Assembly (NCBI RefSeq): GCF_000384315.1
Contig: NZ_ARVW01000001.1
Span: 1,869,746-1,933,745 of the forward strand
DNA length: 64,000 bases
Direction of reading: 5' to 3'
Origin: Amycolatopsis nigrescens CSC17Ta-90
GTDB taxonomy: Bacteria; Actinomycetota; Actinomycetes; Mycobacteriales; Pseudonocardiaceae
The position numbers and the translations under genes were made by a program. This document shows positions 1 to 42,674 of the stretch, one piece after another. A model generated the notes under the pieces. It did no database searches. It was given only the letters and a program-made list of their open reading frames with translations, and was not told where the DNA came from. Numbering within the stretch: position 1 is the stretch's first letter; each line of letters opens with the position of its first letter.

Positions 1-3000
1 TTCGGCGAGGCCGAACATGGTCCGCTGCAACGGGGTCTGCGGCCAGATGTCCGCCGTGCGCGGGTACGCGCCGATCAGCTCGTCCACTTCGGACTGAGCC
101 AGGGCGACCAGCGGGAAGTCCGACGGACTGTGTCCACCGGCGCCCTCTTGTCCGATATGGACGGACAACGCGCGCAGGGCGTCGAACCAGCGCCGGGCCA
201 GCTCGGCCACCTCGGCCTCGCGCAGGATGCCACCGGCGAAGGACCACTGCGCGACCAGCTCCGGGCCGCCGGCACCATCCCTGGTCAGCGCGTTCAGGTC
301 CAGCACGTGCGGCGCGGGCATCGCCGGGTCGAGTGCGCCACCCAGCACGCCCGCCTCCGGCGCGGGCGTCCACGGCGCCTCGTCCGCCCGGCCGGCGTCG
401 AAGCGGCCGAGGTAGTTGAACCCGATCTCCGGCCGGGGATGGCGGGCCAGGGTGTCGCGGGTGTCCGGGTTGAGGTGCCTCAGCATGCCGAAGCCGAGCC
501 CACTGTCCGGAATGGACCTCAGGCTTTCCTTGACCCGCTTGACGATCGTGCCCAGCACCGGCCCACTGGCCAGTGCCTCGTCCAGTACTGCGTCCTCGGT
601 CGGATGCACGTCCAGCCGGAACGGGAAGACGCTGGTGAACCAGCCGACCGTGCGGGAGAGGTCGGCACCGGGTACGGCCTGCTCCTCGCGGCCGTGTCCT
701 TCCAGCTCGACCAGTACCGGCCCCGCCGGCCCGCCCCGGTCCCGCCGCCAGGCGGCCAGCGCCACCGCGAGACCCGCGAGCAGGACCTCGTTCACCCCCG
801 CGTGGAAAGCGGCCGGGACCTTGGTGAGCAAGGGTTCCACGTGCTCGGCGGGAAGCGTCAAGCTGAGCTGTCCCAGCCCGGCAGCGGTGTCGGTGGCCGG
901 GTCCAGCGCGCGGTCGCCCAGCGGGGACCGCGGGCCGTCGAGCATGCCGGTCCACAGCTCCAGCTCGGCTACCCGCTCCGGGGCCGCGGCCAGCTCGGCG
1001 AGCCGGGTCGCCCAGGTCCGGAACGAGGTGCCGGTCCGCTCCAGGACCCCGGCTTCCCAGGCTGCCGCGAGGTCCTCGCGCAGCACCCGCCAGGACACCC
1101 CGTCCACGGCGAGGTGGTGCACCGCGAGCAGCAGCCGTCCCTGTTCCACTGGCCCCGCGTCGAACCAGACTCCCCGCACCAGCACGCCCGCGGCGGGATC
1201 GAGACCGTCGAAGGCCGCCCGCGCGCCGTCGGCGAGCACGTCCCGCCGCCGCTGTTCGTCGAGGCCGCGGAAGTCGACCCTGGTCAGCACGGACTCCGCC
1301 GGCACCGAACCGGGAGGCCGGAACTCCAGGCGCCACGGGCTCCCGTGCACCCGGCCGCGCAAGGCGTCGTGGCGGTCCAGCACCGCCCGCAGCGCGGCGA
1401 TCAGCCGGGGCAGCTCGGCCCCGGCGGGGGTCCGCAGCAGCATCGACAGACTGAAGCGGTCCGGCACCGGGCCGTCCTCGGCCAGCCGCAGCAGGATCGG
1501 CGTCAGTGGCACCGGGCCGGTGCCGGCGTCCGGATCGTCCACTTCGGACGGATCGCCGATCTCGGTGGCCAGCTCGGCGATCCCGGCGACGGTCTTGCCC
1601 TCGAACACCTGCCGGGGCGTGATCCGCAGACCGGCCGCCCGTGCCCTGCTGGTGAGCTGGATGGAGATGATGCTGTCCCCGCCGAGGGAGAAGAACCCGT
1701 CCTCGGCGCCGACCTGTGCCACGCCGAGGATCTCGGCGAACAGCCCGGCCACCAGCTCTTCGCGCGGGCCGCGCGGAGCCCTGCGGTCGGCCGCCCCGGA
1801 GAAGTCCGGCACCGGCAGCGCCGCCCGGTCCACCTTGCCGTTCGTGGTCACCGGCAGCCGGTCCAGCGGCACCAGCGCGGCCGGCACCAGGTAGTCCGGC
1901 AGCACCTCCGCGACCCGGCGGCGCAGCTCGCCGAGGTCGAGCCGGACTCCGTCGCGGGGCACCAGATAGCCCACCAGGCGGCGGATCCCCGGCTGGTCCT
2001 CGCGCACGATCACCACCGACTGGGCGACCCCGTGCTGCGCCGACAGCGCGGCTTCGACCTCACCCGGCTCGATCCGGAAACCGCGGATCTTGACCTGGTC
2101 GTCCACCCGGCCGAGGAAGTCCAGCTCGCCGGTGTCCCGCCAGCGGACCAGGTCCCCGGTGCGGTACAGCCGGGCGCCCGGTGTCCCGAACAGATCGGCT
2201 ACGAATCGGGTCGCGGTCAAGCCGTGCCTGCGGTGGTAGCCGCGGGCCAGCCCGGCCCCGCCGAGGTAGAGCTCACCGGCCACACCGACCGGGACCGGGC
2301 GCAGGAACTCGTCCAGCACATAGGCACGGGTGCCGGGGTCGGGACGGCCGATCGGCACCGGCCCCGGAGCCCAGCCCGGCCCCCGGATCCAGGTCGTGGA
2401 GTTCACCGTGGCCTCGGTCGGGCCGTAGAAGTTGATCAGCCGCCGTCCGGTGAACCGGGTGACCAGCTCGGGTGGCATCCGCTCCGCCCCGACGGCGAGG
2501 ATCGCGCCGTCCGGCAGCTCGGCCTCCACCGGCAGCATCCCGATGAACGACGGCGGCACGTTGATCACGTTCACCCGGTGCTCACGCAGGTACTCGACGA
2601 ACGGCTCGTCCGGCACTCGGCGGTCCTCCGGCGCGACGACCAGTGCGCCGCCGGAGACCAGCGGGATCATCATCTGCCAGAAGGACAGGTCGAAGCTGAT
2701 CGAGACGAAGTGCAGCATCCGGGTTGACTCGCCGGCACCATAGGCGATCTGTTGCAGGGCAACGAGTTTCGCCACTCCTTCATGGGTGACCAGCACGCCC
2801 TTGGCCGCGCCGGTCGAACCCGAGGTGTAGATCAGGTAGGCCGCGTTGTGCACCCGCAGCGGCGCGGTGCGGTCCGCGTCGGACGGCTGGGTCGAAGCGA
2901 AGCCGGACAGCGGATCTTCGTCGAGCACCACGCGCCGCATCCCGGCCGGGGCGCCGATCCGGCCGGTCAGCGCCGAGACCGTGACCAGTGCGACCGGGCC

Positions 3001-6000
3001 GGCGTCGGCCAGCATGGTCGCAATCCGCGCGTCCGGGTAGTCCGGGTCCAGCGGCAGGTAGGCGGCACCGGACTTGAGCACGGCGAGCATCGCGACGATC
3101 ATCTCGGCCGAGCGCGGCAGCGCGATCGCCACCACCCGTTCCGGGCCGGCCCCGGCCGCGATCAGCGCGTGCGCGAGCCGGTTCACCCGCGCGTCCAGCT
3201 CCGCGTAGGTCAGCTCCACGTCCTCGAACACCAGCGCGGTGTTGCCCGGGGTGCTGGCCACCTGCGCGTCGAACAGCTCCGGCAGCGTCACCGGCTCCGG
3301 GATCGCCCCGCTTTTCCCATCGTTCCAGTCGTTCCACGCCACCAGCAGCCGGTCTTGCTCCGCCGGGGCGAGCAGGTCGAGATCGCGCACCGTCCGGTCC
3401 GGCTCGGCGACCGCGTCCGACAGCAGCCGGACCAGCCAGCCGGCGATCCGCTCGGCGGTGGCGCGGTCGAACAGGCCGGTGCGGTAGTTCACCGAACCGG
3501 TGATCGCGCCCTCGCGCCGTTCGGTGAACACGAAGGTGAGGTCGAACCTGGCCACCTCGTCCGGCGCCGCCACCGCGGTGGTGACCAGCCCCGGCAGCGA
3601 AACCCCGCCACCGTCGCGGTTCTGGTACACGACCATCACCTGGAACAGCGGATGCCTTGCCAGTGAGCGCTCCGCCCCGACCACCTCGACGAGCCGTTCG
3701 AAGGGCACGTCCTGATGGGCGTAGGCGGCCAGGCTGGTCTCCCGGACCCTGGCCAGCAGCTCGCGGAAGGACGGGTCACCGGAGACGTCCGTACGCAGCA
3801 CCAGGGTGTTCACGAAGAACCCGACCAGGTCCTCCAGCGCCTGGTCGCCGCGCCCGGCCACCGGACTGCCCAGCGGGATGTCCTCCCCCGCACCGAGGCG
3901 CTTGAGCAGCGCGGCGACCGCGGCCTGTGCCACCATGAACCCGCTCGCCCCGGACTCCAGCGCCAGCGCGCGCAGCCGGTCGGCCACCGGCTCGGCCAGC
4001 CGGAACGGCACCGATGCACCCGCGGTGTCGGTGAACGCCGGGCGCGGCCGGTCCAGTGGCAGCGCCAGCTCCGGCGGCAGGTCCGCGAGCGCTTCCCGCC
4101 AGTACGCGACCTGCTGGGAAAGCACGCTGTCCGGATCGTCCTCGGTGCCGAGCAGTTCCCGTTGCCACAACGCGTAGTCCGCGTACTGCACCGGCAGCGG
4201 CGCGAACTCCGGCGCGGCGCCGGCGACTCGCGCCTCGTACGCGGTGGCGAGATCACGCAGCAACGGCCCCGCCGACCACTCGTCTGCCGCGATGTGGTGC
4301 ACCAGCAGCAGCAACGCGGACTCGCCGTGGCCGAGGTCGAAGAGCCAGGCCCGCAAGGGAATCTCCGCGGACAGGTCGAACCGGTACCTGGCGGCTTCGG
4401 CGAGCCGGTCCGCCAGCACCGCCTCGGTCACCGGCCGCACCGGCAGTGCGAAGTCCACTTCGGACGGTTCGAGCACGGACTGGTAGCCCTTGCCGTCCTC
4501 CTCGCCGAACACCGTGCGCAGGCTCTCGTGCCGGGCCAGCAGATCGCCGACGGCGGCCCGCAGCGCGGCGACGTCCAGGTCACCGTGCAGCCGCGCGGCC
4601 AGCGGGATGTTGTAGGTGTGGTGCGGCCCCTGCAGCCGGTCGAAGAACCACAGCCGCTGCTGGGCGAAGGACAGCGGGATCCGCCGCGGCCGCGGCATCG
4701 GCACCAGGGCCGGTCCGCCAGGCGCGGTCTCGGCGGGCAGTGCCGCCAGCCCGGCCACCGTGGGCTGGTCGAAAAGCCGGCGCAGCGACACCTCGATGCC
4801 GAGCGCGGCCCTGATCCGGGACACCAGCCGGGTGGCCAGCAGCGAATGGCCGCCCAGTGCGAAGAAGTCGTCGTGCACGCCGACCTCCGGCACACCGAGC
4901 ACCTCGGCGAAAAGTCCGGCCAGCGCCCGTTCCCGCTCATCGCGCGGCCGCGCACCCGCGTCGGTGACCCGGTGCTCCGGAGCCGGCAGTGCCGCGCGGT
5001 CAACCTTGCCGTTGGGGGTCAGCGGCAGCGCGTCCAGCACCACGATCGCGGAAGGGACCAGGTAGTCCGGCAGCACCCCGGCGAGGTAGCCGCGCAGCTC
5101 GGCCGGTTCGCAGTCCCCGGCGGACGAAGGCACCACGTAGGCGGCGAGACGGCGGTCGCCGGGCACGTCCTCGCGGTCGATCACCACCCCGTGCGCCACC
5201 GCGGGATGGCGCAGCAGCACGGACTCGATCTCGCCGAGCTCGATCCGGAAACCGCGGATCTTCACCTGGTCGTCGGCCCGGCCGTGGAACTCCAGCTCAC
5301 CTTCGGCGTTCCAGCGCACCAGGTCCCCGGTGCGATAGAGCTGGGCGCCCGGCCTGCCGAACGGGTCCGCGACGAACCGGGTGGCGGTCAGGCCGGGACG
5401 TTCGAGATAGCCCCTGGCCAGCCCGGAGCCACCCACGTACAGTTCGCCGAGCACGCCGGGCGGGACCGGCCGGAGCGCGGTGTCCAGCGCGTAGACCGCG
5501 GTGTTGTCCACCGGCAGCCCGATCGGCACCGCGCCGGACCCGCCGGGACGGCACTCCCACAGCGTGCTGTCCACGGTGGTCTCGGTCGGCCCGTAGGAGT
5601 TGAACATCCGGTGCGTGCCGGCCCAGCGGTCCACCAGCTCCGCGGTGCACGCCTCCCCCGCGACGATCACCGTCACCCCGGCGGGCAGGGCGTCGTCCCC
5701 CGGCAGGGAGGCCAGTGCGGCGGGCGGCAGGGTGACATGGGTGATCCGGTGTTCGGTCAGGAACTCGGCCAGTTCGGCGCCCAGCCGCCGTTCCGCCGGC
5801 ACGATCACGCAGGCGGCCCCGGCCAGCAGGGCCATGTAGATCTCCCACACCGACGTATCGAAGCTGATCGAAGCGAACTGCAGCACCCGCGAACCGGGCT
5901 CGACCGCGAAACGCTCGGTCATGGTGGCGGACAGGCTGGGCAGGCCGGCGTGCGAGACGACCACGCCCTTCGGCCTGCCGGTCGAGCCGGAGGTGTAGAT

Positions 6001-9000
6001 GACGTAAGCGGCGTTACCCGGTCGCAGCGGGCAGCTCCGCTCCGCGTCCGTCGGGTCGGTGCCGGGCATGGCGGCGATCCGGCCCGCCGTCTCCGGGTCG
6101 TCGAGCGGGATCAGCGGCGCCACCTCGGGCAGCGTTCCGGCGAGCGAACCGGTCGTGAGCACCGCGGACGGCTCGGCGTCCCAGAGCAGATAACCGATCC
6201 GCTCGGCCGGGTAGGACGGATCCACCGGCAGGTAGGCGGCTCCGGCCTTCAGCACCGCGAGCATGGCCACGATGGTGTCCACCGAACGGGGCAGTGCCAC
6301 CGCGACCGTGCGCTCCGGGCCGATCCCCCGCGCGATCAGCGCGTGCGCGAGCCGGTTGGCCCTGGTGTTGAGTTCCTGGTAGCTCAGCACGGTGCCGTCG
6401 AACTCGACCGCGGTCGCGGACGGGCCGCGGCGCGCGTGCGCTTCGAACAGCTCCGGCAGGGTGGCCTCGGGCACCGCGCGCCCGGTGTCGTTGCGGAACA
6501 CCAGCAGCTCCGCCAGCTCGTCCCGGCCGAGCAGGTCGAGCCCGCCGACCGGACGGCTCGGCTCGGCCAGCGCGGCGCCGAACAGGGTCGCCAGCCAGCC
6601 GGCGATGCGCTCGGCGGTGGCCGCGTCGAACTGGTCGGTGCTGTAGTTGAGCGCGGCGTCCATTCCGTCGCCGCGCTCCGCGAAGGAGAACGTGAGGTCG
6701 AACTTGGCCGCGCCGGTGCCCGCGGCGACCGGTTCGGTCACCAGCCCGGGCAGGCCCACCGCCGAGGCGGCGCGGTTCTCGTAGGTCACGCCCACCTGGA
6801 ACAGCGGGTGCCGCGAAACCGAGCGGGCCGGGTTGAGCAGGTCCACCAGCCGTTCGAAGGGCACGTCCTGGTTCGCATACGCGGCCAGGCTGGACTCCCG
6901 GACCCGCGACACCAGCTCGCGGAACGACGGGTCGCCCGACACGTCCGCCCGCAGCACCAGCGTGTTCACGAAGAACCCGACCAGCTCGTCCAACGCCTCG
7001 TCGCCGCGCCCGGCAACCGGGCTGCCCAGCGGGATGTCCTCCCCGGCACCGAGCCTCGCCAGCAGCGCGGCCACCGCGGCCTGTGCCACCATGAACACGC
7101 TCGCGCCGGACTCCAGCGCCAGCTTGCGCGCACGCCGGTGCAGTTCGGGCGGCAGCGGGACGGAGACCGACGCGCCCCGGTAGCTCGGCCGCGCCGGACG
7201 CGGACGGTCCCGTGGCAGCTCCAACTCATCCGGCAGCCCGGCCAGCGCCTTCTCCCAGTACGCCAGCTGCCCGGCGAGCACACTGCCGGGATCGTCCTCG
7301 GTGCCGAGGAATTCCCGTTGCCACAGCGTGTAGTCCGCGTACTGCACCGGCAGCGGCGCGAAATCCGGGGCCACACCGGCGACCCGCGCCGCGTACGCGG
7401 TGGCCAGATCACGCAGCAACGGCCCCGCCGACCACTCGTCCGCCGCGATGTGGTGCACCAGCAGCAGCACCGCGTGCTCCCCCGGCCCGAGGGTGAACAC
7501 CCAGGCGCGCAAGGGAATCTCCCGTTCCAGGTCGAACTCGTGGCGGGCCGCCGCGGCGAGCGCCGCGGACAGCTCGTCCTCGGTGCAGCGCGACTCCACC
7601 AGCTCGGGCGAAGCGGCTTCGAGCACCACCTGGCGGGCATGGGTATCGGACTCGGCGAACACGGTGCGCAGGCTTTCCTGCCGGGTCACCAGATCGCCTA
7701 CCGCGGCCCGCAGCGCGGTGACGTCCAGGTCACCGCGCAGCCGTGCGGCCAGCGGGATGTTGTAGGTCGCGCTCGGCCCCTCCAACCGGTGCAGGAACCA
7801 CAGGCGCTGCTGGGCGAAGGACAACGGCAGCTCATCCGGGCGAGCCATCGGCCGGATCGGTGGACGGATCGCCGCGGTCTCATCCAGCCGCCCGGCCACC
7901 CCGGCGACCGTGCGGGCGTCGAAGAGCACCCGGATCGGCAGCTGCACCCCGAGCATGGCGCGGATCCGACTGACCAGCCGGACCCCGAGCAGCGAATGCC
8001 CGCCGAGGGCGAAGAAGTCGTCGTCGATCCCCACCGAGGCGACGCCGAGCACCTCCGCGAACAACTCCGCCAGCAGCTCTTCCTGCGGCGAACGCGGCGC
8101 CCGGCCCGCCTTCTCCACCACCCGGCGCGTCAGGGTCAACGCCTGGCGATCGAGCTTTCCATTGGCGTTCAACGGAAGCTCGTCCAGTACGACGACCGAA
8201 GAAGGCACCATGTACGACGGCAGCAGCGACTCGACGTGCGCGGTGAGCGCGGCCGGTCCGGCGCCGGGTCCGGTCACGAAAGCCGCCAGCGCACCGGTTT
8301 CGTCCAGCACCACGGCGGCGTTGGCCACTTCGGGATGGCGCAGCAGGGCCGCTTCCACCTCGCCAAGCTCGATCCGGAAACCGCGGATCTTCACCTGGTC
8401 GTCCACCCGGCCGAGGAACTCGAGCTGTCCCGCCGGGCTCCACCGCGCCAGGTCCCCGGTGCGGTAGAGCGGGGTGCCCGGCGCACCGAAGGGGTTCGCG
8501 ACGAACCGGCTTGCGGTCAGCGCGGGCCGGTTCCGGTAGCCCGCCGCGATCCCGGGCCCGGCGAGGTACAGCTCTCCGGTCACCCCCGGCGGCACCGGCG
8601 CCAGTGCCGCGTCCAGCACGTAGGCCCTGGAGTTCCCGATCGGGCGGCCGATCGGCGGCGCGGCTTCTTCCTCGGCCGCGCCCTCGGCGTACCAGGCCGT
8701 CGCGTACACGGTGGCCTCGGTGGGCCCGTAGATGTTGGCCACCTTGGCCTCGGGCAGCCGCTCCCGCAGCCGCCGGACCAGGCTGCCCGGCAGCGCTTCC
8801 CCGGCCAGCACCACGATCCCGGCCGAAAGCTCCAGCCGGTCGTCGTCCAGCACCGTGGCCAGCACCGAGGGAACCCCGCTGAGCAGGCTGAAAGCACGCG
8901 GCCCGGTAACCTCGGCGAGTTCGAGCAGGTCCCGCACCAGCTCGATCGAACCACCGGAGAGCAGCGGCGCGAAGATCTCGAACACCGACACGTCGAAGGT

Positions 9001-10916
9001 GAGCGAGGTGGACGCGAGCACGTAGGCCAGCCCGTCCCGGCCGAACTCGGCACGGGCCCATGCGACGAGCGCGGCCACGTTCTCGTGCGCGACCACGACA
9101 CCCTTGGGCCTGCCGGTGGAACCGGAGGTGTAGATCGTGTAGGCGGGATGCACCGGACACAGTGGACGGACGCGCTCAGCGTCGGTGAGGTCTGCCGCGG
9201 AGTATCCGGCCAGTTCCGCAGCCACGTCGTCGAGCATCAGCGGCGTGAGCACCAGCCCCGGGCTCGCGTCCGCCAGCACGAAGGCAAGGCGCTCGGCCGG
9301 ATGCGCCGGGTCCAGCGGCAGGTAGGACGCCCCGCACTTGAGCACCCCGAGCAGGGCGACGACCAGCCCGGCATTCCTCGGCAGCGCCACCCCCACCGAG
9401 CCCCCCGGCCCCACTCCCCTGGCCAGCAGCAACCTGGCGAGCCGGTTGGCGCGCTCGTTGAGCTCGCGGTAGCTCAGCATCTCCCCGTCACAGCGCACCG
9501 CCGTGGCGTCCGGGTCCCGCGCCACCTCGGCCTCGAACAACGCCGGGATCGTCTCCGCGGGCACTTCGAAGGCGCTGCCCTGCCACTCGTGCAGCACGTT
9601 CCGGCGCTCGGCCGCGGTGAGCACGCTGAGGTCGGCGAGTTTGCGGCCGGGGTCGGCGAGCACCGTGCGGAACAGCGCACCGAGCCGGCCGGCGAGTTCC
9701 TCGGCGGTGGCCGCGGACAGCACATCCGGCCGGTACTTCAGCTGCAGTCGCAGCTTTCGCCCCGGCACGACCACCACGGTCAGCGGGTAGTGCGTGGCGT
9801 CCCGGCCACCCGCTGCGGAGACGCGGAGCCCGGTTTCTTCGGCGGGCCCCTGTCCTGGCGGGTAGTTCTCGAATACGAAGAGGGTGTCGAACGCTTCGCC
9901 GGTGCCTGCCGCCGCCTGGATCTCGGCCAGCCCGAGGTGCTGGTGTTCCAGCAGCCCGGCCTGTTCCCGCTGCAACCCGGCCAGTACCTCGCGCACCGGG
10001 GCGGACGCGGGCAGCCGGACCCGGACCGGCACCGTGTTCACGAACAGCCCGAGCATCGATTCGACCCCGGCGAGCTGGGCGGGACGGCCGGAAACCGTGC
10101 TGCCGAAGACCACGTCGTCGCGGCCGGTGACCGCGCCGAGCAGGATCGCCCACACGCACTGGACGATCGTGTTCGAGGTGAGCCGGTCCAGCTTGGCCAG
10201 CGCGTCCAGCCGCTCGGTGTCCTCTTCGGACAGTTCCACGGTGACCTGCTCGGGCAGGACCGCCCCGGCCGCGGAGCCGGGCGGGGTGAGCAGCGTCGGC
10301 TCGGTCAGCCCGGATAGGGACTCCCGCCACGCCTCTCGCGCGGCATCGGCATCCTGGCCGGCCAGCCAGCTCAGGTAGTCCCGGTACGGACGCGGCCGCG
10401 GCGGCTCGGTGCCCGGCTCGGCGTACAGCGTGAGCAGCTCGCGGATCACCAGCGGCAGCGACCAGCCGTCCAGCACGATGTGGTGATGGGTGAACAGCAG
10501 CCGGTGACGGGCGGGGGCGAGCTTCAGCAGGGTGAAGCGCACCAGCGGCGGCTGGGTGAGGTCGAACCGGCGGGTCCGGTCGGCATCGCGGATGCGGTCG
10601 GCCTCCGCCGCGCGGTCCGCTTCCGGCAGCCCGGTGAGGTCGGCCGAGTGCCACGGCAGCTCCACCTGGCGGGGCACCAACTGCACCGGCTCGCCGTTCT
10701 TCCGCCGCCGGAAACAGGCCCGCAGCACCGAATGCCGCGTCACCAGCCGTTCCGCCGCGGCCCGCAGCCCCGCTTCGTCCAGCTCGCCGTCGAGATCCAC
10801 CGCGAGCTGGACCAGGTACACGTCCGGTTCCCCAGTGGTGCCGGCGGTCGCGTGGAAGAGCAACCCCTGCTGCAACGGGGACAGCGGCAAGATGTCCTCG
10901 AGGCCCTGCTCCGTGC

Positions 10917-10920
<4 letters not shown>
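1..10920 (-). CDS. Nonribosomal peptide synthetase, modules 8-10 plus start of 11 (NRPS3, 3' end outside window)
   Basis: Third NRPS of the assembly line, open for 3640 codons to the window edge. The GTG start (10918-10920) overlaps the stop of NRPS2 by 4 bp (GTGA). Domains by approximate residue: C8 1-450, D-accepting type with HHIVLDGWS near 155; A8 454-950, [10 protein letters not shown] near 601; T8 near 974 (GGHS); C9 1030-1480, HHIAADEWS near 1161; A9 1484-2000; T9 near 2025; C10 2084-2540; A10 2548-3060; T10 near 3081 (GGDS); E10 3137-3610, [10 protein letters not shown] near 3268. The next C domain then begins with WPQTPLQ, so the protein has at least one more module. Pocket codes read by eye: A8 DVFSVAIVYK, A9 DTWTIASVDK, A10 DLWNAGFVNK; none is assigned with confidence. 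Residue 10 should be D. No release domain is visible. Confidence 0.95.
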
Positions 10921-18659
<7,739 letters not shown>

Positions 18660-18661
18660 TG

Positions 18662-27600: not shown

Positions 27601-30600
27601 GATACGTCGGGCTGGCCCCCTCCAGCTGGTGCAGGAACCACAGCCGCTGCTGGGCGAAGGACAGCGGCAACCGGTCTGGACGCGGCCGTGCCCGCAGCGG
27701 GAGCCGGTCGCGACCGCCGGCGCCGAGCAGCGCGGACAATCCGGCCACGGTGGGCGCCTCGAACACGGCCCGCACCGAAAGCCGGGCGTCGAAGGCCGAG
27801 CGCAGCCGGGAGACCAGCCGGATCGCCAGCAGCGAATGCCCGCCCAAGGCGAAGAAGTCGTCGTCGATCCCGAGCTGCTCGCGGCCGAGCAGGTCGGCGA
27901 ACACCTCGCACAACAGCTCTTCGCGCGGGGTGCGCGGCCTTCGCGACTCGGCCGTTTCTCCAGCTTCCGGCGCGGGAAGGGCGGCCAGGTCGAGCTTTCC
28001 GTTGGCAGTCAACGGAAACTCGTCCAGGGTCAGGAAGATCTCGGGCACCAACTGCTTCGGCAGGCGTTCGCCGAGGTACGCGCGCAGCTCACCGGGTTCC
28101 GGACGCACACCGGGCTCCGGCAGCAGGTACGCCACCAGGCGCCGGTCACCGGGAGCGTCCTCGCGGGCGGCCACCGCGGCCCGACGCACCCCGGGATGCC
28201 CGGTCAGCGCGGCCGCCACCTCGCCGGGTTCGATCCGGAACCCGCGGATCTTGAGCTGCTCGTCCGCGCGCCCGGCGAACTCGATCGTGCCGTCCGGCCG
28301 CCACCTGGCCAGGTCCCCGGTCCGGTAAAGAAGCCCACCCGTCGCCCGACCACCACCCCCCAACGAGGCGCTTCGCGCCGCAGTGTCTCCCTCACCGAAC
28401 GGGTCAGCTACGAACCGCTCGGCGGTCAGGCCGGGCCGGTTGAAGTAACCGCGTGCCAGCCCCGCCCCGGCCAGGTACAGCTCGCCGGTCACTCCGGCGC
28501 CGACCGGGCGCAGCGCCGAGTCGAGCAGGTACGCGCGCATGCCGTCCAGCGGACGGCCGATCGGCACCACGGCGGCCGGGGGCGCGTCCGGGGAAACCTG
28601 GTGCGCGACGGCGAAGGTGGTGGTCTCGGTCGGCCCGTAGCCGTTGACCACGGCGACCTCCGGCGCGGCCGCGAGCACCCGCCGCACCGCCCCGGCCGGC
28701 ACCACGTCCCCGCCGGTCCACACCTCGCGCAGCCCGCGGAAGGTCTCCGGCGCCTCTTCGGCCACCACGGCGAACAGCCCCGCGGTGAGCCAAAGTCCGG
28801 TGACCTCGTGCTCGGTGATCAGCGCGCGCAGCGCCCCGGCGTCCAGTTCGGTGTCCGGGGCGAGGATCACCCGGCCGCCGGTGAGCAGCGGCACCCACAG
28901 CTCGTAGGTGACCGCGTCGAAGGAGTGCGGCGAGTGCAGCAGCACCCGCTCGTGCGCGCCCCCGCGCCAGCGGCTGTCGGCGGCCAACGCGGTCACGTCG
29001 CCCATGGTCACCGCCACGCCCTTCGGCGTGCCGGTGGAGCCCGAGGTGAACATGACGTAGGCCAGCTGCGCCGGGTGCCCGGAGGGGAAGGTGACCTCGC
29101 GCTGGTCCGGATCGGGCAGGTCGGTATGCAGCACCGGCACCTCGCCGACACCGGGCACCGAGCCATGACCGGACGTGGTCAGTACGAGCGCGGCACCGGT
29201 CTCGCGGAGCAGCAGGGCCGTCCGCGCGGCGGGCAAGTCCGGCTGCACCGGGACGTAGGCGGCACCGGCGCGGCCGGCCGCGAGCATGGCCACCACCAGT
29301 TCCACGGACCGGCGGTAGGCCAGCGCGACCCGGCTCTCCCGGCCGATCCCGTGCCGCCGCAGCCGGGCGGCCAGCGCGGTGACGCGCACGTCCAGCTCGG
29401 CATAGCTCAGCCGGACGTCACCGGCCACCAACGCGATCGCGTCCGGATGGTGCCGGACACCCGCGGCGAACAGCTCGTCCGGGGTGCTTTCGCTTTCGGG
29501 ATGCCCGGTGCTGTTCCACTCCACCAGCACGCGCCGCCGCTCGTCGGCGGAAAGCAGCTCCACCGAGCCGATCCGGGTTTCCGGGGCGTGCACCACCGCT
29601 TCGAGGAACCGGCAGAACCAGCCGGCGAGGCGTGCCACGTCGGCCCGCTGGAACAGGGCGGACCGGTAGTTGATCGTGCCGTCCAACCGGGTGCCGTCGC
29701 CGTGCTCGGCGAAGGCGAAGGTGAGGTCGAACTTCGCGGTCGGCGTCCGCACCGGCGTCACCCGCGCGGCGAGCGCGCCCCAGTCGGCGTCTCCCGGCCG
29801 GTTCTGGTGCACCAGCATCACCCGGAACAGCGGGTTCGCCGCCTCCGAGCGGTCCGGGTTGAGCACCTCCACCAGCCGGTCGAAAGGCAGCTCCTGCCGG
29901 GCGAAGGCGGCGAGGTCGGTCTCCCGCACCCGGCCGAGCAGTTCCCGGAAAGCGGGGTCACCGCCGGTGTCGGTGCGCAGCACCAGGGTGTTCACCAGGA
30001 AGCCGACCATCCCGTCGAGCGCGGCCTCGCCCCGGCCCGCCACCGGGGTGCCGAGCGGGACGTCCGTGCCGGCACCCAGCCTGGTGAGCAGCGCGGCGAC
30101 CGCGGCCTGCAACACCATGAACGGCGTGGTTCCCGTTTCGGCGGCCAGCCGCCGCACCCCGCGCAGGGCCTGCTCGGACGGGGTGAAGTCGACGTACCCG
30201 CCGTCGGACGAACTCGACGCCCCGCGCGTGAACGGCAGCTCGTGCGCGGCAGGCATCCCGTCCAGCCGGGCCGACCAGTAACCGGCCTGCCGGGCGAGCA
30301 GGCTCGCCGGGTCGGCGCCGTCACCGAGCAGTTCTCGTTGCCACAGCGTGTAGTCCGCGTACTGCACGGGCAACGGCCGCCACCGCGGTTCGGTGCCGGC
30401 GGCCCGCGCCCGGTAGGCCGCCGCGAGGTCGCCCAGCAGCGGTTCGAGCGACCATTCGTCGCAGGCGATGTGGTGCAGCAGCAGGAAAAGCGTGTGCTCC
30501 TCCGGTCCGGCCCGCAGGATTCGCGCCCGCAGCGGCGGTTCCGCGGCCAGGTCGAACCGGTGCTCCCGGCCGAGTCGGGCCAGCAGCGTCTCGAGCGACG

Positions 30601-33600
30601 CCGGCCCGGCCACCACCAGCTCCGGGTCGAAGCACCGCGCGAGCAGGTCCTCGCCCGGCGGCAGCACCCGCTGCCACGGCACGCCGTCGCGCTCCGGGTA
30701 CACCGTGCGCAGGATCTCGTGCCGGGCCATTACGTCGCCGAGCGCGGCGCGCAGGGCGGCCCGATCGAACGGGCCGCTCAGCTCCACCGCGACCGGCACG
30801 TTGTAGGTCGCCCCGCCGTCGAGCCGATCGGCGAGCCAGAGCCGGTGCTGTGCAGGGGAAAGCGGCAACCGCTCCGGGCGTGCCATCGGCCGCGGCGCGA
30901 GTCGTGGCGTTCCGTCGGCGGCCCGCATTGCCAGCTCCCGCACCGTCGGCGCCTCGAACACGTCCCGCAGCGACACCGCCGCGGACAGCTCGGCGCGGAT
31001 CAACCCGATCAGCCTGGTCGCCAGCAGGGAATGCCCGCCCACGGCGAAGAAGTCGTCGTCGATGCCGATCTCGGGGAGGCCGAGCACCTCGGCGAACAGC
31101 TCGCACAGCCGCCGCTGGAGCGCCGTGCGCGGTGCGGTGCCGGTGACCTGTCCGCCCGGTTCGGGGTCGGGCAGCGCTCGGCGGTCCACCTTCCGGTTCG
31201 GCAGCAGCGGCAGTTCGTCGAGCACCACGAAGGCCGCCGGAACCTGGTGCGCGGGCAGCAGCGCCGCGGTGTGCCGGCGCAGCTCGGCCGGCTCCAACCG
31301 CTCGCCAACCACATAGCCGACGAGCTGTTTGCCGGCAAGGTCGTGGTCACGGGCGACCACGACGGCCTCCGTGACGTCCGGGTGGCCGAGCACGGCGGCC
31401 TCCACCTCCGCGGGCTCCACCCGGAAGCCCCGGATCTTGACCTGGTCGTCGACCCGGCCGAGCATCTCCAGCTGCCCGTCCGGCGTCCACCGCACCCGGT
31501 CACCGGTCCGGTAAACCTGGTCGCCCGAGCCAAAGGGATCGGCCACGAACCGCTGCGCGGTCAGGCCCGGCTGGTGCAGATAACCCCGCGCCAGCCCGGC
31601 GCCGCCGAGGTACAGCTCACCGGCCACGCCCGGCGGCACCGGGCGCAACCCGTCGTCGAGCACGTAGGCGGTCTTGTCCACGTCCGGGCGGCCGATCGCG
31701 ACCCGGCCGCCGTCGAACCCGCGCGGACAGGTCCACAGCGTGGAGTTCACCGTGGACTCGGTCGGGCCGTAGGCGTTGAACATCGGGTGCCCGGGAGACC
31801 AGCGCTCGAACAGGGTGGGCGGGCAGTGGTCCGCGCCGACGATCACGGTCATCCCGGCGGGCAGGCTGCCGGCCGGCACGGTGGCCAGCGCCGATGGCGG
31901 CACGTCGAGATGAGTGAGGCGATGCCGGGTGACGAAGGCGGCCAGCTCCGGGCCGAGCCGCTGTTCGGCGGGCACCACCGCCAGCGCGCCACCGGAGAAC
32001 ACGCTCATCGCCAGCTCGGAGAACATCATGTCGAAACTCGGTGAGGCGAACTGGAGGTGCCGGGTGCCGGGGCCGGCGGTCACCGTGCTGTCCCAGGTCT
32101 CCACCAGCCCGGCGATGCCCTCGTGGGTGGACACCACGCCCTTGGGGCGGCCGGTGGACCCGGAGGTGTAGATCAGGTAGGCCGCGTTCGCCGGGCGCAG
32201 CGGCGCGAGCCGGTCCGCGTCGGTGGGGTCGGAGTCGGGCAGCCCGGCAAGTTCGGCCAGGGTTTCCTGGTCGTCGAGCACCAGCCGGGGCAGCTCCACC
32301 GGCATCTCGATGGCACCCGTGGTCAGCACCAGTTCGGGCGCGGAGTCCGCCAGTACGTACCCGACCCGCTCGGCCGGGTAGTCCGGGTCCACCGGCACGA
32401 ACACGGCACCGGCCTTGTGCACCGCGAGCAGCGCCACCACCACGTCGATGGACCGGGGCAGCAGCACCGCGACGGTCCGCTCCGGCCCGGCACCCCGCCG
32501 GATGAGCGCGTGCGCGAGGCGGTTGGCGCGCGCGTTGAGCTCGGCGTAGGAAAGTTCGGTCTCGTCGTCGAGCAGCGCGACCGCCGACGGGTTCGCCGTC
32601 ACCTGCCGTTCGAAGATCGACGGTGTGGTCTCCGGCGCCAACCCGGCCATCCGTCCTTTGCCGAGCCGGACCCGCTCGGCCAGCTCGTCTTCGCACAGCA
32701 CATCCAGTGTCGCGAGTGGACGGTCGGGTTCGGCGGTGGCGCGGTCCAGCAGGGTGACCAGCCACCTGGCGATCCCGGCCACGGTGTCCCGGTCGAACAG
32801 CTCGGTGCTGAACTCGATCTCGCCGGACAGCCCGGCCGTCCCGGCCCGCTCGATGAGCGCGAACGCGAGGTCGAACTTGGCGGTGCCGGTCCGGACCAGC
32901 TCACGGTTCAGCCCGAGGTCGCCGAAACCGAGGCCGTCCGTGCCCTCGGTGCGAAAGTCGAGCATCACCTGGAACAGCGGATGACGCGCGGTCGAGCGCA
33001 CCGGGTTCAGCGCCTCGACCAGCCGAGCGAACGGGAGGTCCTGGTGCGCGAGCGCGGCCAGGTCGGTGTCGCGGACCCGGTCCAGCAACTCGGCGAAGCT
33101 GGGATTGCCGGCCAGATCGGTGCGCAGCACCAGCGGGTTCACGAAGAAACCCACCACGCGGTCGAGGGCGTCGTCGGTCCGTCCCGCCGCCGGCACCCCG
33201 ATCGGCAGGTCGGTACCCGCGCCGAGCCTGTTCAGCAGGGCCGCCAGTGCGGCGTGAACCAGCATGAACATGCTCACCCGGTACCGGGACGCGCAAGCCC
33301 GCAGGCGGGCGTGCAGCTCCTCCGGCACGGTGAAGGCGAGCGCGTCACCGGCGCCGGTCGGACGAGCGGGCCGCGACCGGTCGGCGGGCAGCTCCAGCTC
33401 CTCGGGCAGGCCGGCCAGCTGCCCGCGCCAGTAGTCCAGCTGGGCGGCGGCGACGCTGCCGGGATCGCCGGGGTCGCCGAGCAGTTCGGTCTGCCAGCGG
33501 GTGAAATCCCGGTAGCACAACGGAAGCCGCGGCCAAGCGGGCTCGGTGCCGCCGAGCCGGGCGGTGTAGGCCTCGGCCAGTTCCTCGACCAGCACGTCGA

Positions 33601-36600
33601 GGGACCACTCGTCGGCCACGATGTGGTGCAGCAGCACCAGCAGTACGTGTTCTTCGTCCCCGAGGTGGAAAAGGCGGAACTCCACCGGCGGCGCGGAACC
33701 CAGGTCCAACGGCCGCCGGGCCGCGGCCGCCAGCGCCGCCGGGAAACCGTCCATTTCGGACTCCACGATGACCAGCTCCGGGCCGTCGTCGAGCACGACC
33801 TGCGCCACCTGGCCGGTGTCGCCGTCGAACACGGTGCGCAGGCTTTCGTGCCGTGCCACCAGATCAGCCACCGCGGCGGCCAGCGCGGGCACGTCCAGCG
33901 CACCGGTGAGCCGCAGCGCCAGCGGCACGTTGTAGGTGGCGCCGTGGCCGGACATCCGGTCGGAGAACCACAACTGCTCCTGCGCGTACGACAGCGGGAC
34001 CCGGCCGGTGGCACCCGCCACGGGCGACGGGCGGGCGACGGCCGTGCCGGTCAGCTCCCCGACGAGTCCGGCCGGGGTCGGCGAATCGAACACCTTGCGC
34101 ACCGGCGGAGCGGCCCCGAGCACCGCCCTGATCCTGGCCACCAGCCGGATCGCGGACAGCGAGTCGCCGCCGAGGCCGAAGAAGTCGTCGCCGGGCCCGA
34201 CCGACGCCAGCCCGAGCACCTCACCGAAGAGCCGGCACAGCACCTGCTCCGCCGGAGTGCCGGTGACCCGATCGGTACCGGCCTGCCCGGACGCGGACGT
34301 GGGCGCGGGCAGCGCCGCGCGGTCGATCTTGCCGTTCGGCGTCAGCGGAAGCTCGTCCAGCACGACGAACGCCGAGGGCACCAGGTAATCGGGCAGCACC
34401 TCGCCGAGCGCCTTGCGCAGCCCCGCCGGGTCCAGGTCCGGCGCGGCGACCAGGTAGGCCACCAGCCGCTGCCGGCCGCCGGGGTCGGCGACCACCACCG
34501 CGCGGGTCACCTCGGGTCGGCGCAGCAACTCGGCTTCGATCTCCCCCGGCTCGATCCGGAACCCGCGCACCTTCACCTGGTGGTCGGCCCGGCCGAGTAC
34601 GTCGAAGGTGCCGTCTCCCCGACTGCGGGCAAGGTCGCCGGTCCGGTAGCACACCGAACCCGGCGGCCCGTAGGGATCGGCGACGAACCGTTCCGCGGTC
34701 AGCGCCGCGCGGCCGAGATAGCCGCGGGCCACCCCCGCCCCGGCGATGTACAGCTCCCCCACGGTGCCCGTGCCGACCGGGGCCAGCGCACGGTCCAGCA
34801 CGTACAGCCGGGTGTTCAGCACCGGCGCGCCGATCGGCGGGTCGCCCTCGGTGGCATCGAGCTGATGTGCGGCAGACCAGATGGTGGTTTCGGTCGGGCC
34901 GTAGAGGTTGCTGACCACCGCACCGGCGCCGCGCAGCCGGTCGGCGAGTGCGGCGGGCAGCCGCTCACCCCCGGCCAGCACCCGCCGCCCGCGCAGCACC
35001 TCGGCGTCGTGCCCGGCCAACGTTTCCCATAACGACGGGGTCGCTTGCACTACCCCCGCGTCGGTGCGTCTGAGCAGCTCGGTCAGCAGGGCCGGATCGC
35101 GGACCTGCTCGCGGTCGGCGAGCACCACCGTCGCGCCCTGGACCAGTGGCAGGTACAGCTCCAGCGCGGCGATGTCGAAGCCGACGGTGGTCACCGCGAG
35201 CAGCCGGTCGCCGGGCCCGAGCGGCACCTGCGTACGCATCGCGTGCAGGAAGTTCGCCAGGTTCGCCGAGGACACCACCACGCCCTTGGGTCGCCCGGTG
35301 GAACCCGAGGTGTAGATGACGTACGCGGCGTGTTCCGGCCTCCGGCGTACCGGTGCCTCGACGGCGCTCGTCGGGTGCTCGTCGTCCAGCCGGAGCCTGG
35401 CGACCCCCGCGGGCACCTCCAGCTCGGTTTCCGATTCCGTCACCAGCACCGCGGGTCCGGCGTCGGCCAGCATCGCGGCCAGCCGCCGGGGCGGGAACTC
35501 CGGGTCCAGCGGCAAGTAGGCCGCGCCGGTCTTGGCCACCGCGAGCAGAGTCGCCACCAGGTCCGCGGACCGCGGCAGCAGCACGGCGACCAGCCGCTCA
35601 GCGGTAGCGCCGAGGCCGGACAGCCGCCGCGCCAGCCGGTCTGCCCGCGCGTTCAAGTCCTGATAGGACAGTTCCAGCCCACCGGCGAGCAGTGCGGGCG
35701 CATCTGGGGTACTGGCGACCTGGGCCTGGAACAGCTCCGCCAGCCCGGCCTCGGGCAGCTCCCGAACCGGCCCTTCGCTGGTCGCGACCGGCTCATCCCC
35801 GGCGGTCACGGTCAGCGCGCCGACCGGGAGCGAACCGCGTCCTTCGGCGAACTGGCCCAGCAGTCCGGTGAACGCGCGCAGGTGCCGGTCCAGCTCTTCG
35901 ACCCGGTAGCCCCGCGGGTTTCCGTCCAGCTGGGCCAGCAACTCGTCCCCCGGCGACTTGCTCACGGTGAACGAGAGGTCCTCCACCGCGCCCGCGGCCA
36001 GGTAGTGCGACACCCCGCGATGCGCGCCGAAACGCAGTTCCGGGTCGAACGGCTTGATGTTGATCCACGGCCCCACCAGCCGCCGCCGTTCCCCGAGCAG
36101 CCGGAGGTCGCGCCGCAGTTCCTCGCCCCGGTAGCGCTGGTGCGGCCGCTGCGCGCGCAGCTCCGCCCGCACCGAGGCGGTCAGCTCGGCCACCGTCGTC
36201 CATGGACTCACCGCCAGCCGCAGCGGCACCACGTTGACCGCGGTCGCCGGCACCCTGGCCGCGACCGAGCCCAGCCTGCCCATCACCGGCAGCCCCAGCA
36301 CCACCTCGTCGGCACCGGCGCACCGGTGCAGATAGGCTGCGGCCGCCGCGATCAGCACCTCCGCCCAGGTCGACTTCAGCTCCGCGGCGAGCCCGCTCAG
36401 CTCGCGCGCACCGCCAAGCGCGACCGATCTCCGGTGGAACGAGTGATCCGGCGCGGCGTACTGGTCGCTCAGGCCGGGGACCCCGGATAGCCCAGCCAGC
36501 CGCTCTGTCCAAAAGCGACGGTCGCGGTCCAGGTCCGCGGAGCCGCGGTAGGCGAGGTCTTCCTCGACCAGTTCCCGCAACGGTCGGAACGGTGACGGTC

Positions 36601-37105
36601 CGGGGCTTTCCCCGGCGGCCAGTGCCGTGTAGACCTCGGCGACCCGGCCGGTGACCATGGTGAAGCCGTAGGCGTCGAGCAGGATGTGGTGGAACCGCTG
36701 GAACCAGAAGTAGCGCTCGTCGCCCAGCCGCAGCAGGGCTTCGGTGTAGAGCCGGTCGGCCAGCAGGTCGACCGGCGCCGCCAGGTCCGCCCGCATCCAG
36801 TCCCGTGCCGCCGCTTCCGGGTCGGCTTCGCCGCGCAGATCGACCAGCACCAGCGGGGATCCCGCCAGCGGCCGAACCCGTTGCACAGGGCCGTCGGTGC
36901 CGTCGGAGAACCGGACTCGCAGGCCGTCCGCCTCCGCCAGCACGTGGTGCACGGCGGTGACGAACACGGACTCGTCGACCGCTCCGGTGATCTCCACGTA
37001 CTCGGCGGTGTTGTAGGTCGGGTTCAGCTCGTCCACCTGCTGGGCGAGCCAGATTCCGGCCTGCGCGCCGGTGAGGGCCAGTGTCGGTTCCTCGGGGACG
37101 GTCAT
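18662..37105 (-). CDS. Five-module nonribosomal peptide synthetase that starts the DHB peptide (NRPS1)
   Basis: A 6147-residue NRPS, C-A-T/C-A-T/C-A-T/C-A-T-E/C-A-T-E. C1 (1-440) carries HHILLDAYG near 139, resembling EntF/DhbF starter C domains, so it should take DHB from the separate aryl carrier protein. A domains (core TSGSTG near 598, 1647, 2687, 3749, 5241) have codes: A1 DILQLGLIWK (Gly); A2 DMSDIGAVNK (unassigned); A3 DAYWWGGTFK (Val-like); A4 DVFSVAAVYK (unassigned); A5 DANQAGLVDK (unassigned). Carrier serines lie near 980, 2026, 3089, 4137 and 5623. E4 ([10 protein letters not shown] near 4319) and E5 ([10 protein letters not shown] near 5804) follow T4 and T5. C2-C4 read HHxxxDEWS; C5, after E4, reads HHLVTDGWS, matching a D donor. 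A3 has an in-frame insertion of about 18 residues (2904-2926). The start is 49 bp after the oxidase stop. Product by colinearity: DHB-Gly-X-Val-D-X-D-X. Confidence 0.96.
28325..28400. repeat. Palindromic repeat-like insertion inside the A3 coding sequence
   Basis: Where the other A domains go directly from FVADPFG to YRTGD, A3 of NRPS1 has about 18 extra residues rich in Gly, Ala, Arg and Ser. The DNA contains a perfect hairpin, GGCGC-TTC-GCGCC, at 28367-28379, next to a run of C on the plus strand. The inserted length keeps the frame. The segment looks like an intergenic REP-type palindrome that has landed in a surface loop between adenylation motifs A6 and A7; its family is not identified here. 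Confidence 0.5.
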
Positions 37106-39180: not shown

Positions 39181-39393
39181 TCAGGACTCTTCCATCGCCG
39201 CGATCAGGCTCTTCGGCCGCATGTCGGTCCAGTGCGTCTCGACGTAGTCCAGGCAGTCCTGCCTGGACGCCTCGCCGTGCACCCGGGTCCAGCCCGCCGG
39301 TATGTCTATAAAGGACGGCCAGAGGGAATGCTGGCCCTCGTCGTTGACCAGCACCAGAAAGGGCTTGCTCTCGTCCTCGAAGGGATTGGTCAT
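39181..39393 (-). CDS. mbtH: MbtH-like protein, NRPS adenylation partner
   Basis: A 70-residue protein of the MbtH family, which binds A domains and helps them fold and activate amino acids. Recognisable features are the N-terminal NPFEDE, the [13 protein letters not shown] core, the PAGW turn, and the C-terminal WTDMRPKSL; the conserved tryptophans are present. The ATG at 39393 has GGAGG 5 nt upstream; an in-frame upstream extension to 39447 lacks family similarity. First gene of the NRPS operon, 65 bp downstream of an iron box, and the only MbtH in the window, so it probably serves all the visible A domains. Confidence 0.97.
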
Positions 39394-39458
39394 GACCGCC
39401 TCCACGTCGCATAGGCCGCCAGGAAACGGCGTGCGCCCCCATGGCAATAACTCGCAAG

Positions 39459-39477
39459 TTAGGTAAGGGTAACCTAA
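39459..39477. promoter_or_regulatory. Iron box (IdeR/DmdR site) controlling mbtH-oxidase-NRPS
   Basis: TTAGGTAAGGGTAACCTAA matches 17 of 19 positions of the actinobacterial iron-box consensus TTAGGTTAGGCTAACCTAA and is a near-perfect palindrome. It lies in the 135 bp gap between the permease stop and mbtH, 65 bp upstream of the mbtH start. Known role of such sites: Fe(II)-loaded IdeR or DmdR1 binds and represses; iron starvation should therefore induce the NRPS operon. Confidence 0.9.
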
Positions 39478-41642: not shown

Positions 41643-41667
41643 GCCGCCCGAACACCGCCCGCTCCGG

Positions 41668-42495: not shown

Positions 42496-42590
42496 CTCCC
42501 GAACCAATCCCCTCAGAATCTTGCGGGCAAGGCCGCCGATGCCGCGCCACCTCACTACGAAGATGCTTCACTTCAGCACAAACAGTAAGC

Positions 42591-42655: not shown

Positions 42656-42674
42656 TTAGGCTAGCCTCACCTAA
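42656..42674. promoter_or_regulatory. Iron box upstream of the dhb operon
   Basis: TTAGGCTAGCCTCACCTAA matches 17 of 19 positions of the DmdR1-type consensus and ends 28 bp before the dhbA ATG, so it probably overlaps the promoter or transcription start. Together with the box at 42591 it brackets a 46 bp core holding two divergent promoters. One repressor could shut off catechol synthesis and iron uptake together. Confidence 0.9.

What the first reader, a model, noticed from the sequence alone, without database searches (positions are those of the whole stretch)
1..37105. Very long DHB-primed NRPS line with at least eleven modules
The sequence shows ten complete modules and the start of an eleventh C domain in three coupled genes, fed by a complete DHB pathway. 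Well-known DHB siderophores (bacillibactin, enterobactin, griseobactin, heterobactin, fuscachelin) use far fewer modules. By colinearity the product begins DHB-Gly-X-Val-D-X-D-X-Thr-D-Ser-X-X-D-X. A single catechol cannot fill iron's coordination sphere, so other ligands must come from unassigned residues, or the peptide has a further role. I know of no described product with this order.
Basis: partly seen in the sequence, partly recalled or inferred. Interest (0 to 1): 0.78.

Follow-up and report, generated by a model that had tools for sequence, protein, structure and literature searches.

The report
Ten-module catechol siderophore assembly line
A soil actinobacterium carries a ten-module enzyme line, apparently switched by iron, that probably makes a large ring-shaped iron scavenger related to the known siderophore megalochelin but shorter, with a bigger predicted ring and an unusual ending.

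Summary
In detail: three coupled NRPS genes carry ten complete modules beside a full DHB pathway. But the line is not "at least eleven": the last gene ends 1,175 bases left of the window with a lone condensation (C) domain, no eleventh adenylation domain and no thioesterase found. The same domain order exists in Prauserella cavernicola and Goodfellowiella coeruleoviolacea. The closest described product is megalochelin (PMC10127220), a 13-residue siderophore whose DHB cap is C-C bonded to a histidine, a bond its authors ascribe tentatively to a multicopper oxidase. The window has a related oxidase, a DHB-type starter C domain, and module 9 with the megalochelin histidine code. Of 26 oxidase-adjacent NRPS clusters examined, 25 had exactly one such module. 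Missing iron ligands are probably hydroxamates: modules 2, 5 and 10 group with ornithine-type modules; Goodfellowiella carries hydroxylase and formyltransferase in its cluster, the window genome at 2.86 Mb. Iron boxes precede both operons. I call it a new variant of the megalochelin kind: predicted nine-residue ring, one-residue tail, release by a terminal C domain. Structure, ring and release are inferred, not shown.

The parts
18662..37105 (-). NRPS gene N1, modules 1-5: C-A-T / C-A-T / C-A-T / C-A-T-E / C-A-T-E
10917..18659 (-). NRPS gene N2, modules 6-7: C-A-T / C-A-T-E
   Evidence: start ATG at 18659 chosen because the C domain begins just after it and the longer ORF overlaps N1
1..10932 (-). 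NRPS gene N3, modules 8-10 plus terminal C domain; gene continues to position -1175 outside the window
1..54 (-). first residues of the terminal C domain (whole hit -1166..54), motif HHLVLDG, gene ends after it
35831..37090 (-). starter C domain of the DHB-accepting kind; 48% to that of the S. buecherae 13-module line, 28-33% (local) to the ten other C domains of this line
34271..35665 (-). A domain module 1, DILQLGLIWK, Gly
31130..32548 (-). A domain module 2, DMSDIGAVNK; in the clade that holds the fhOrn-type codes, acidic residue at 278; basic or hydroxamate-forming ornithine-like residue (uncertain)
27938..29404 (-). A domain module 3, DAYWWGGTFK, Val
24818..26209 (-). A domain module 4, DVFSVAAVYK, unassigned (E domain, so D)
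20330..21730 (-). A domain module 5, DANQAGLVDK, nearest to hydroxyornithine-type domains (E domain, so D); uncertain
15801..17210 (-). A domain module 6, DFWNIGMVHK, Thr
12639..14066 (-). A domain module 7, DVWHLSLVDK, Ser (E domain, so D)
8095..9471 (-). A domain module 8, DVFSVAIVYK, unassigned, same clade as module 4
4945..6381 (-). A domain module 9, DTWTIASVDK, identical code to module 7 (D-His) of the S. buecherae 13-module line; no E domain here, so L-His expected
   Evidence: PMC10127220 section 8
1774..3207 (-). A domain module 10, DLWNAGFVNK, in the clade that holds the fhOrn-type codes (E domain, so D); uncertain
37155..39176 (-). multicopper oxidase with twin-arginine-like N-terminus and the copper-ligand motifs, phenoxazinone-synthase-like; proposed DHB-His cross-linking enzyme
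39181..39447 (-). MbtH-like protein
39529..40545 (-). FecCD permease subunit
40590..41933 (-). FecCD permease subunit (ORF probably over-extended at its 5' end)
41668..42555 (-). siderophore-interacting protein (FAD_binding_9 and SIP domains)
42691..43476 (+). 2,3-dihydro-2,3-dihydroxybenzoate dehydrogenase (DhbA)
43517..44707 (+). isochorismate synthase (DhbC)
44704..46320 (+). 2,3-dihydroxybenzoate-AMP ligase (DhbE), above curated cut-off
   Evidence: searches used a wrong frame
46339..46986 (+). isochorismatase without carrier domain
46983..47228 (+). free-standing aryl carrier protein
39459..39477 (+). IdeR/DmdR-type iron box before mbtH-oxidase-NRPS (2 mismatches; consensus recalled)
42656..42674 (-). 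IdeR/DmdR-type iron box before dhbA (2 mismatches on this strand); a weaker copy (4 mismatches) at 42591-42609

Best explanation
The region is a complete, iron-regulated biosynthesis and uptake cluster for a megalochelin-type mixed catechol/hydroxamate siderophore. DHB made by the adjacent operon is loaded on the free carrier protein and joined to Gly1 by the starter C domain; ten modules then build DHB-Gly-X2-Val-D-X4-D-X5-Thr-D-Ser-X8-His-D-X10 (domain order shown; residues from codes). X2, X5 and X10 are ornithine-type, and at least two of them probably supply hydroxamates, using an ornithine N-hydroxylase and a formyltransferase encoded at 2.86 Mb in another siderophore cluster (inferred). 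The oxidase, which has an export signal, then bonds the DHB ring to the His9 imidazole, closing a nine-residue ring (inferred from megalochelin and from co-occurrence). No thioesterase was found: a terminal C domain, kept in three genera, releases the D-X10 thioester, most likely by joining it to an amine such as putrescine or to an internal nucleophile (inferred, least certain step).
For: Ten modules, a terminal C domain with intact motif and no further module in the complete genome. Same order and same or near-same codes in Prauserella (35 domain hits) and in Goodfellowiella (37 hits: two C domains are hit in two pieces across ORF borders); HHxxxDG of the terminal C kept in the three. Starter C 48% to that of S. 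buecherae AC541, a strain whose cluster the megalochelin paper compares, versus 28-33% to the ten other C domains here. M9 code identical to S. buecherae module 7; 34-residue signature 0.95 to that module in other Streptomyces. Exactly one DTWT[IV]AS-type module in 25 of 26 oxidase-adjacent NRPS clusters, one of them read only as a partial code; 0 of 25 codes in NRPSs without linked oxidase that I happened to read. Hydroxylase plus formyltransferase at the Goodfellowiella cluster and 3 of 10 Streptomyces clusters, hydroxylase alone at S. XM4193 and A. antarctica; stretches of the others may stop short. DHB cassette beside the NRPS in Kutzneria, G123, G085 and G169 and some 14 kb from the hydroxylase in HNM0575. 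Iron boxes before both operons, none in 100 shuffles, and before mbtH in both orthologous clusters.
Against: No chemistry or expression data. I found no print assignment for the codes of M2, M4, M5, M8 and M10, and the signatures of M2, M5 and M10 are only 0.56-0.71 similar to their nearest non-orthologs, against 0.8-0.98 for the other modules. M10 is 55% identical to its own neighbour M9, more than to any assigned domain. A near-identical code, DTWTIASVSK, is listed as software-predicted Phe in a Serratia line (PMC3547906, passage). Hydroxylase and formyltransferase lie about 0.95 Mb away in the window genome, and the DHB genes are unlinked in Goodfellowiella and Prauserella, so co-supply is indirect. 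No iron box at the same threshold in the 2.80-Mb cluster, Kutzneria, HNM0575 or S. buecherae stretches. The oxidase is 53-58% identical to the Streptomyces ones, and the role of MclF is a speculation of its authors. The terminal C is the least conserved domain compared (57% and 60%). One oxidase-adjacent NRPS fragment (G180) showed one complete A domain, not His-type, and one oxidase with DHB genes had no NRPS within 40 kb.
Confidence: 0.62

Rival explanations
1. Same siderophore, but the multicopper oxidase makes no cross-link: it is a secreted ferroxidase or catechol/copper-protection enzyme, and the peptide stays linear.
For: Best PDB match is phenoxazinone synthase and then spore-coat laccase CotA; it scores under the PhsA cut-off (730 vs 950) and has a twin-arginine-like signal. 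Related oxidases also occur with no NRPS nearby: five of nine genomes picked by oxidase similarity. Linear megalochelin occurs as a minor form.
Against: Oxidase-adjacent NRPSs carry exactly one His-type module in 25 of 26 clusters, which a general ferroxidase would not require.
Confidence: 0.17
2. The terminal C domain attaches a diamine (putrescine-like) to D-X10, as in glidonin, rather than closing a ring or cyclising X10.
For: M10 sits in the clade with the fhOrn-type codes, whose formylated nitrogen could not cyclise on its own. PMC10587159 shows a C domain joining putrescine to the last residue and cites a terminal C domain for malleobactin (passages). The 17 relatives whose hOrn-coded (DAWEGG[FL]VDK) last module was read end in E (10) or T (7), with no terminal C.
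Against: I recognised no amine-making gene among the cluster genes annotated, without a dedicated search; M10 specificity is uncertain; the acceptor pocket was not modelled.
Confidence: 0.35
3. The DHB genes and the NRPS work in separate pathways: DHB serves only the second line at 2.83 Mb.
For: That line has a starter C related to the window's (38%), and the NRPS orthologs in Goodfellowiella and Prauserella are not next to DHB genes. The 2.80-Mb stretch showed no iron box at the threshold used.
Against: Iron boxes precede both operons here; the window starter C is of the DHB kind; the second-best isochorismate-synthase match (4.48 Mb, 50%) has no DhbA, E or B in 20 kb; the best-matching DHB cassettes of Goodfellowiella and Prauserella have no NRPS module in 60 kb (weaker DhbE matches in Goodfellowiella were not read).
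Confidence: 0.05
4. Modules 4 and 8 load piperazic acid.
For: Module 4 shares DVFSVAA with published piperazic-acid codes DVFSVAAYAK (passages of PMC9866976, PMC3943440, PMC5031334).
Against: The last two code positions differ in the alignment, though the himastatin domain compared has a one-residue gap there. A. anabasis and A. antarctica, which carry the same module clade, have no match to FMN_bind_2, the family that I recall holding the piperazate synthase; other carriers have a match.
Confidence: 0.1

Closest known systems
Megalochelin (mcl cluster, Streptomyces ID71268; S. buecherae AC541)
   Same: FecCD-MbtH-multicopper oxidase-NRPS order, DHB-type starter C, Gly1, one DTWTIASVDK module (His), no thioesterase, hydroxyornithine ligands, ABC and ViuB-like genes
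   Different: 13 modules against 10; D-His at position 7 against L-His expected at 9; six-residue tail against one residue; ends without a terminal C; DHB supplied in trans and hydroxylase/formyltransferase in cluster, the reverse of the window
Edaphochelin A
   Same: megalochelin analogue with one extra Gly (seen only as passages of PMC12834688)
   Different: Streptomyces product, longer; no cluster read
Qinichelin (Streptomyces sp. MBT76)
   Same: catecholate-hydroxamate, DHB supplied in trans, ends in cyclic hOrn without thioesterase (as cited in PMC10127220)
   Different: original paper not held; no DHB-His ring as far as I recall
Chlorodactyloferrin
   Same: DHB-type cap, Gly first, hydroxyornithines, cyclic hOrn end; the figure legend lists C, A, T and E domains only (passages of PMC10683483)
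   Different: 7 modules, chlorinated cap, no in-cluster oxidase candidate, linear
Glidonin termination by a C domain
   Same: a C domain joins an amine to the finished peptide (passages of PMC10587159)
   Different: lipopeptide, C-A*-T-TE module; here a bare C domain
Phenoxazinone synthase (3GYR)
   Same: closest solved relative of the oxidase by sequence
   Different: below the PhsA equivalog cut-off; no aminophenol pathway recognised among the cluster genes annotated

Membership tests
megalochelin-type siderophore cluster | FecCD-MbtH-multicopper oxidase directly before a multi-gene NRPS | tested here: met
megalochelin-type siderophore cluster | DHB-accepting starter C domain followed by a Gly module | tested here: met
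megalochelin-type siderophore cluster | one His-type module (DTWTIASVDK) | tested here: met
megalochelin-type siderophore cluster | in-cluster ornithine hydroxylase and formyltransferase | tested here: not met
   no match within 40 kb left and 10 kb right of the window; present at 2.859 Mb. Goodfellowiella ortholog has both in cluster
megalochelin-type siderophore cluster | terminal DAWEGG[FL]VDK hydroxyornithine module, no terminal C, no thioesterase | tested here: not met
   no thioesterase found, but the last module is DLWNAGFVNK and is followed by a C domain
[quoted passage not shown]
   needs the compound
mixed catecholate-hydroxamate siderophore | DHB pathway plus ornithine hydroxylase in one genome | tested here: met
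mixed catecholate-hydroxamate siderophore | at least two hydroxamate-forming modules | tested here: inconclusive
   M2, M5 and M10 fall in ornithine-type clades with low signature similarity; no print assignment found
iron-regulated siderophore locus | IdeR/DmdR boxes before the biosynthetic operons | tested here: met
   consensus recalled, binding not tested
bacillibactin/enterobactin-type | few modules with iterative thioesterase trimerisation | tested here: not met
   ten modules and no thioesterase found

The most novel reading that the evidence does not exclude
A dispersed actinobacterial family of DHB-capped peptides in which one exported copper oxidase closes DHB-His rings of different size, set by where the single His module stands (position 4, 7 or 9, apparently also 3), so the oxidase is tolerant of ring size. 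In the window lineage the ring takes in nearly the whole peptide, hydroxamate ligands lie inside it, and a terminal C domain caps the one-residue tail with an amine or a macro-hydroxamate bond. That would be a siderophore architecture I have not found described.
Probability: 0.3. Interest if true: 0.72.

Novelty: new variant of a known kind. Interest (0 to 1): 0.52.

Why it matters
It suggests that the published DHB-His ring siderophore of Streptomyces has relatives in Amycolatopsis, Goodfellowiella, Prauserella, Kutzneria and others, with His at different positions. That makes two open points testable: whether the multicopper oxidase makes the catechol-imidazole bond, and what the ring is for. 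It also offers a natural terminal C domain as a possible release device in a siderophore line, and a case of two siderophore clusters that seem to share DHB and hydroxyornithine supply in both directions.

Tried and rejected
Piperazic acid at M4/M8 was considered and thought unlikely. A test of the His-oxidase link from the His side (150 family genomes) was not usable as a census: only 11 candidates per genome were scored, at its threshold it missed the known His module of G020, and three of its six hits (G137, G158, G176) turned out not to have the His code. A thioesterase or eleventh module left of the window was looked for and not found. The second ornithine hydroxylase at 6.47 Mb has no NRPS domain in 60 kb and was set aside as supplier. 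Structure prediction, fold search and the large protein search were not used.

The 26 oxidase-adjacent NRPS clusters: window, Goodfellowiella, Prauserella, G020, G008, A. anabasis, Kutzneria; A. antarctica, HNM0575, S. griseus, S. buecherae, A. rubida; S. tagetis, physcomitrii, alboflavus, typhae, anulatus, XM4193, pyxinae, Streptosporangium, Sinosporangium, Pseudonocardia CNS-139 (partial; His code read only as TVASIDK); G123, G085, G169 have one His-type module; G180 (26.8-kb contig, one complete A domain, opposite strand) does not show one. Left out: L045, which is oxidase-adjacent but was not extended; Pseudonocardia TRM90224 and G133, G101, G144, G164, G090, which had no NRPS in the 40 kb read. 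Of the 34 places listed only part was read. The 25 control codes are 6 (2.80 Mb) and 2 (beside the A. antarctica cluster), 2, 6, 9; they are what I happened to read, not a random sample.
Full report
What is there. The window is positions 1869746-1933745 of a one-contig 9.11-Mb genome. Its genus is that of Amycolatopsis anabasis: G021, given as same genus, has a contig of the same length (116,937) as the A. anabasis record. Three coupled minus-strand genes hold ten C-A-T modules with E domains after modules 4, 5, 7 and 10. The last gene runs 1,175 bases past the left edge and ends with a C domain. The next genes are a periplasmic-binding-protein gene and two ABC-transporter genes. So the count is ten modules plus a terminal C domain, with no thioesterase found.

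Precursors and uptake. A divergent operon makes DHB: DhbA, DhbC, DhbE, an isochorismatase without carrier domain, and a separate aryl carrier protein. The cluster also has MbtH, two FecCD permeases, a siderophore-interacting protein and a multicopper oxidase with a twin-arginine-like start. Boxes matching the IdeR/DmdR consensus (recalled) lie before mbtH and before dhbA; 100 shuffles of the window gave none. Both orthologous clusters have a box before mbtH, Goodfellowiella also one before the siderophore-interacting protein and one at its DHB locus; none was found at this threshold in the stretches of the 2.80-Mb and 6.44-Mb loci of the same genome, Kutzneria, HNM0575, S. buecherae or the Prauserella DHB locus.

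Relatives. In 20 of these 80 the oxidase lies beside NRPS domains within the flanks held, 10 kb or less. Prauserella cavernicola has the same 35 domains in the same order on four ORFs. Goodfellowiella coeruleoviolacea has the same order on five ORFs, with two C domains hit in two pieces across ORF borders (37 hits; split genes or draft errors, not resolved). C, A and E identities to the window are 57-78%, lowest for the terminal C (57% and 60%), whose HHxxxDG motif is kept. A sister type with ten modules and no terminal C occurs in A. anabasis, A. antarctica, A. rubida, G008, G020 and Kutzneria viridogrisea. A 13-module type occurs in Streptomyces, and its S. buecherae AC541 member is compared with the megalochelin cluster in the original paper.

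Link to megalochelin. I read the abstract, sections 6, 7 and 8 and passages of PMC10127220. [quoted passage not shown] Its authors suggest, without proof, that the oxidase makes the bond. Mapping its 13 residues on the S. buecherae codes gives DTWTIASVDK for His, DVCVIGAVNK for fhOrn and DAWEGGLVDK for hOrn (my mapping). DAWEGGLVDK is also given for hOrn in PMC7692728 (passage). Module 9 of the window has exactly the His code, and its 34-residue signature is 0.95-0.98 similar to His-coded modules of relatives. Against this, DTWTIASVSK is listed as software-predicted Phe in PMC3547906 (passage).

Test of the oxidase-His link. In 25 of 26 oxidase-adjacent NRPS clusters there is exactly one His-type module; the exception, G180, shows one complete A domain on a short contig. 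Nine genomes were picked from the 150-genome oxidase search for oxidase similarity alone: five had no NRPS in 40 kb, three (G123, G085, G169) had an NRPS with one His-type module, and one was G180. None of 25 codes from NRPSs without linked oxidase that I happened to read is of this type. The His module stands at position 9 in the window lineage, 7 in Streptomyces, 4 in the sister type, and apparently 3 in Streptosporangium, where the starter C is on the third gene. This is correlation, not proof of the reaction.

Hydroxamates. The window and flanks gave no match to the ornithine hydroxylase or formyltransferase of Goodfellowiella. The genome has two strong hydroxylases: at 2.859 Mb with a formyltransferase beside a six-module NRPS whose starter C is 38% identical to the window's, and at 6.47 Mb. 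Goodfellowiella has hydroxylase and formyltransferase directly next to its cluster, where the window has the DHB genes; its best-matching DHB cassette, and that of Prauserella, sit elsewhere with no NRPS module in 60 kb. Modules 2 and 10 fall in a clade that holds the fhOrn-type codes (support 0.91, 30 leaves); module 5 falls with hOrn-like domains (support 0.71, 6 leaves); signature similarities of the three are low, 0.56-0.71. I therefore expect at least two hydroxamates, but which of the three residues form them is open.

Release. Of the relatives, I read the end of 17 whose last module has the code DAWEGG[FL]VDK: ten end in E, seven in T, none has a terminal C. The window line and its two orthologs end in E-C. 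The terminal C groups with the C domains that follow E domains. If residue 10 is formylated it cannot cyclise by itself, so an amine or internal nucleophile is the likely partner; glidonin gives a shown precedent for an amine (passages).

How sure. Order, genes, box sequences and orthology are shown. The residues Gly, Val, Thr, Ser and His rest on codes. Iron control, ring, hydroxamate positions, shared supply and release are inferred. In the 150 family genomes sampled, 3 (own, and two whose coordinates match Goodfellowiella and Prauserella) carry both the window-type oxidase (74% or more) and the window-type His domain (70% or more). In print, searches of the open-licence library gave no description of this ten-module order in what I saw (mostly listings); subscription papers were not searchable.

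Noticed in passing
G000:C1 2832919-2861293 (L007-L009, L128): Second siderophore NRPS of the same genome, six modules (fhOrn-like, D-Ser, hOrn-like, Ser, Ser, hOrn-E by code), starter C 38% to the window's, with ornithine hydroxylase and formyltransferase; may share DHB with the window line.
   Followed up: partly
L192-L197 (G123), L198-L201 (G085, G169): A further oxidase-linked type with two VDTTISLGDK-like codes (beta-alanine-like, recalled), a His-type module and a DHB cassette in cluster.
   Followed up: partly
L160-L165 (Streptosporangium saharense, Sinosporangium album): Short oxidase-linked NRPSs with a His-type module; in Streptosporangium the starter C lies on the third gene, so His may be residue 3; large C-terminal tails not analysed.
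   Followed up: partly
L177-L178 (Pseudonocardia sp. TRM90224): Related oxidase beside dhbE and dhbA but no NRPS within the 40 kb read.
   Followed up: no
L223-L226 (Streptomyces himastatinicus, 1.10-1.18 Mb): Another long NRPS with modules coded DVFSVA[IM]VYK like modules 4 and 8 of the window; its product might reveal that residue.
   Followed up: no
L111-L115 (Goodfellowiella), ORF borders in the NRPS: Two C domains are hit in two pieces across neighbouring ORFs; split genes or draft-sequence errors, not resolved.
   Followed up: no
window 47278-49105: DUF222 gene followed by repeated copies of its C-terminal part (seen in the ORF list).
   Followed up: no
window 50873-57615: Apparent respiratory nitrate reductase operon (judged by eye, not searched).
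   Followed up: no
window 37155-39176: The oxidase has a twin-arginine-like N-terminus, as do 11 of the 14 relatives printed (three ORFs are over-extended and unresolved), so a cross-link may be made outside the cytoplasm.
   Followed up: partly
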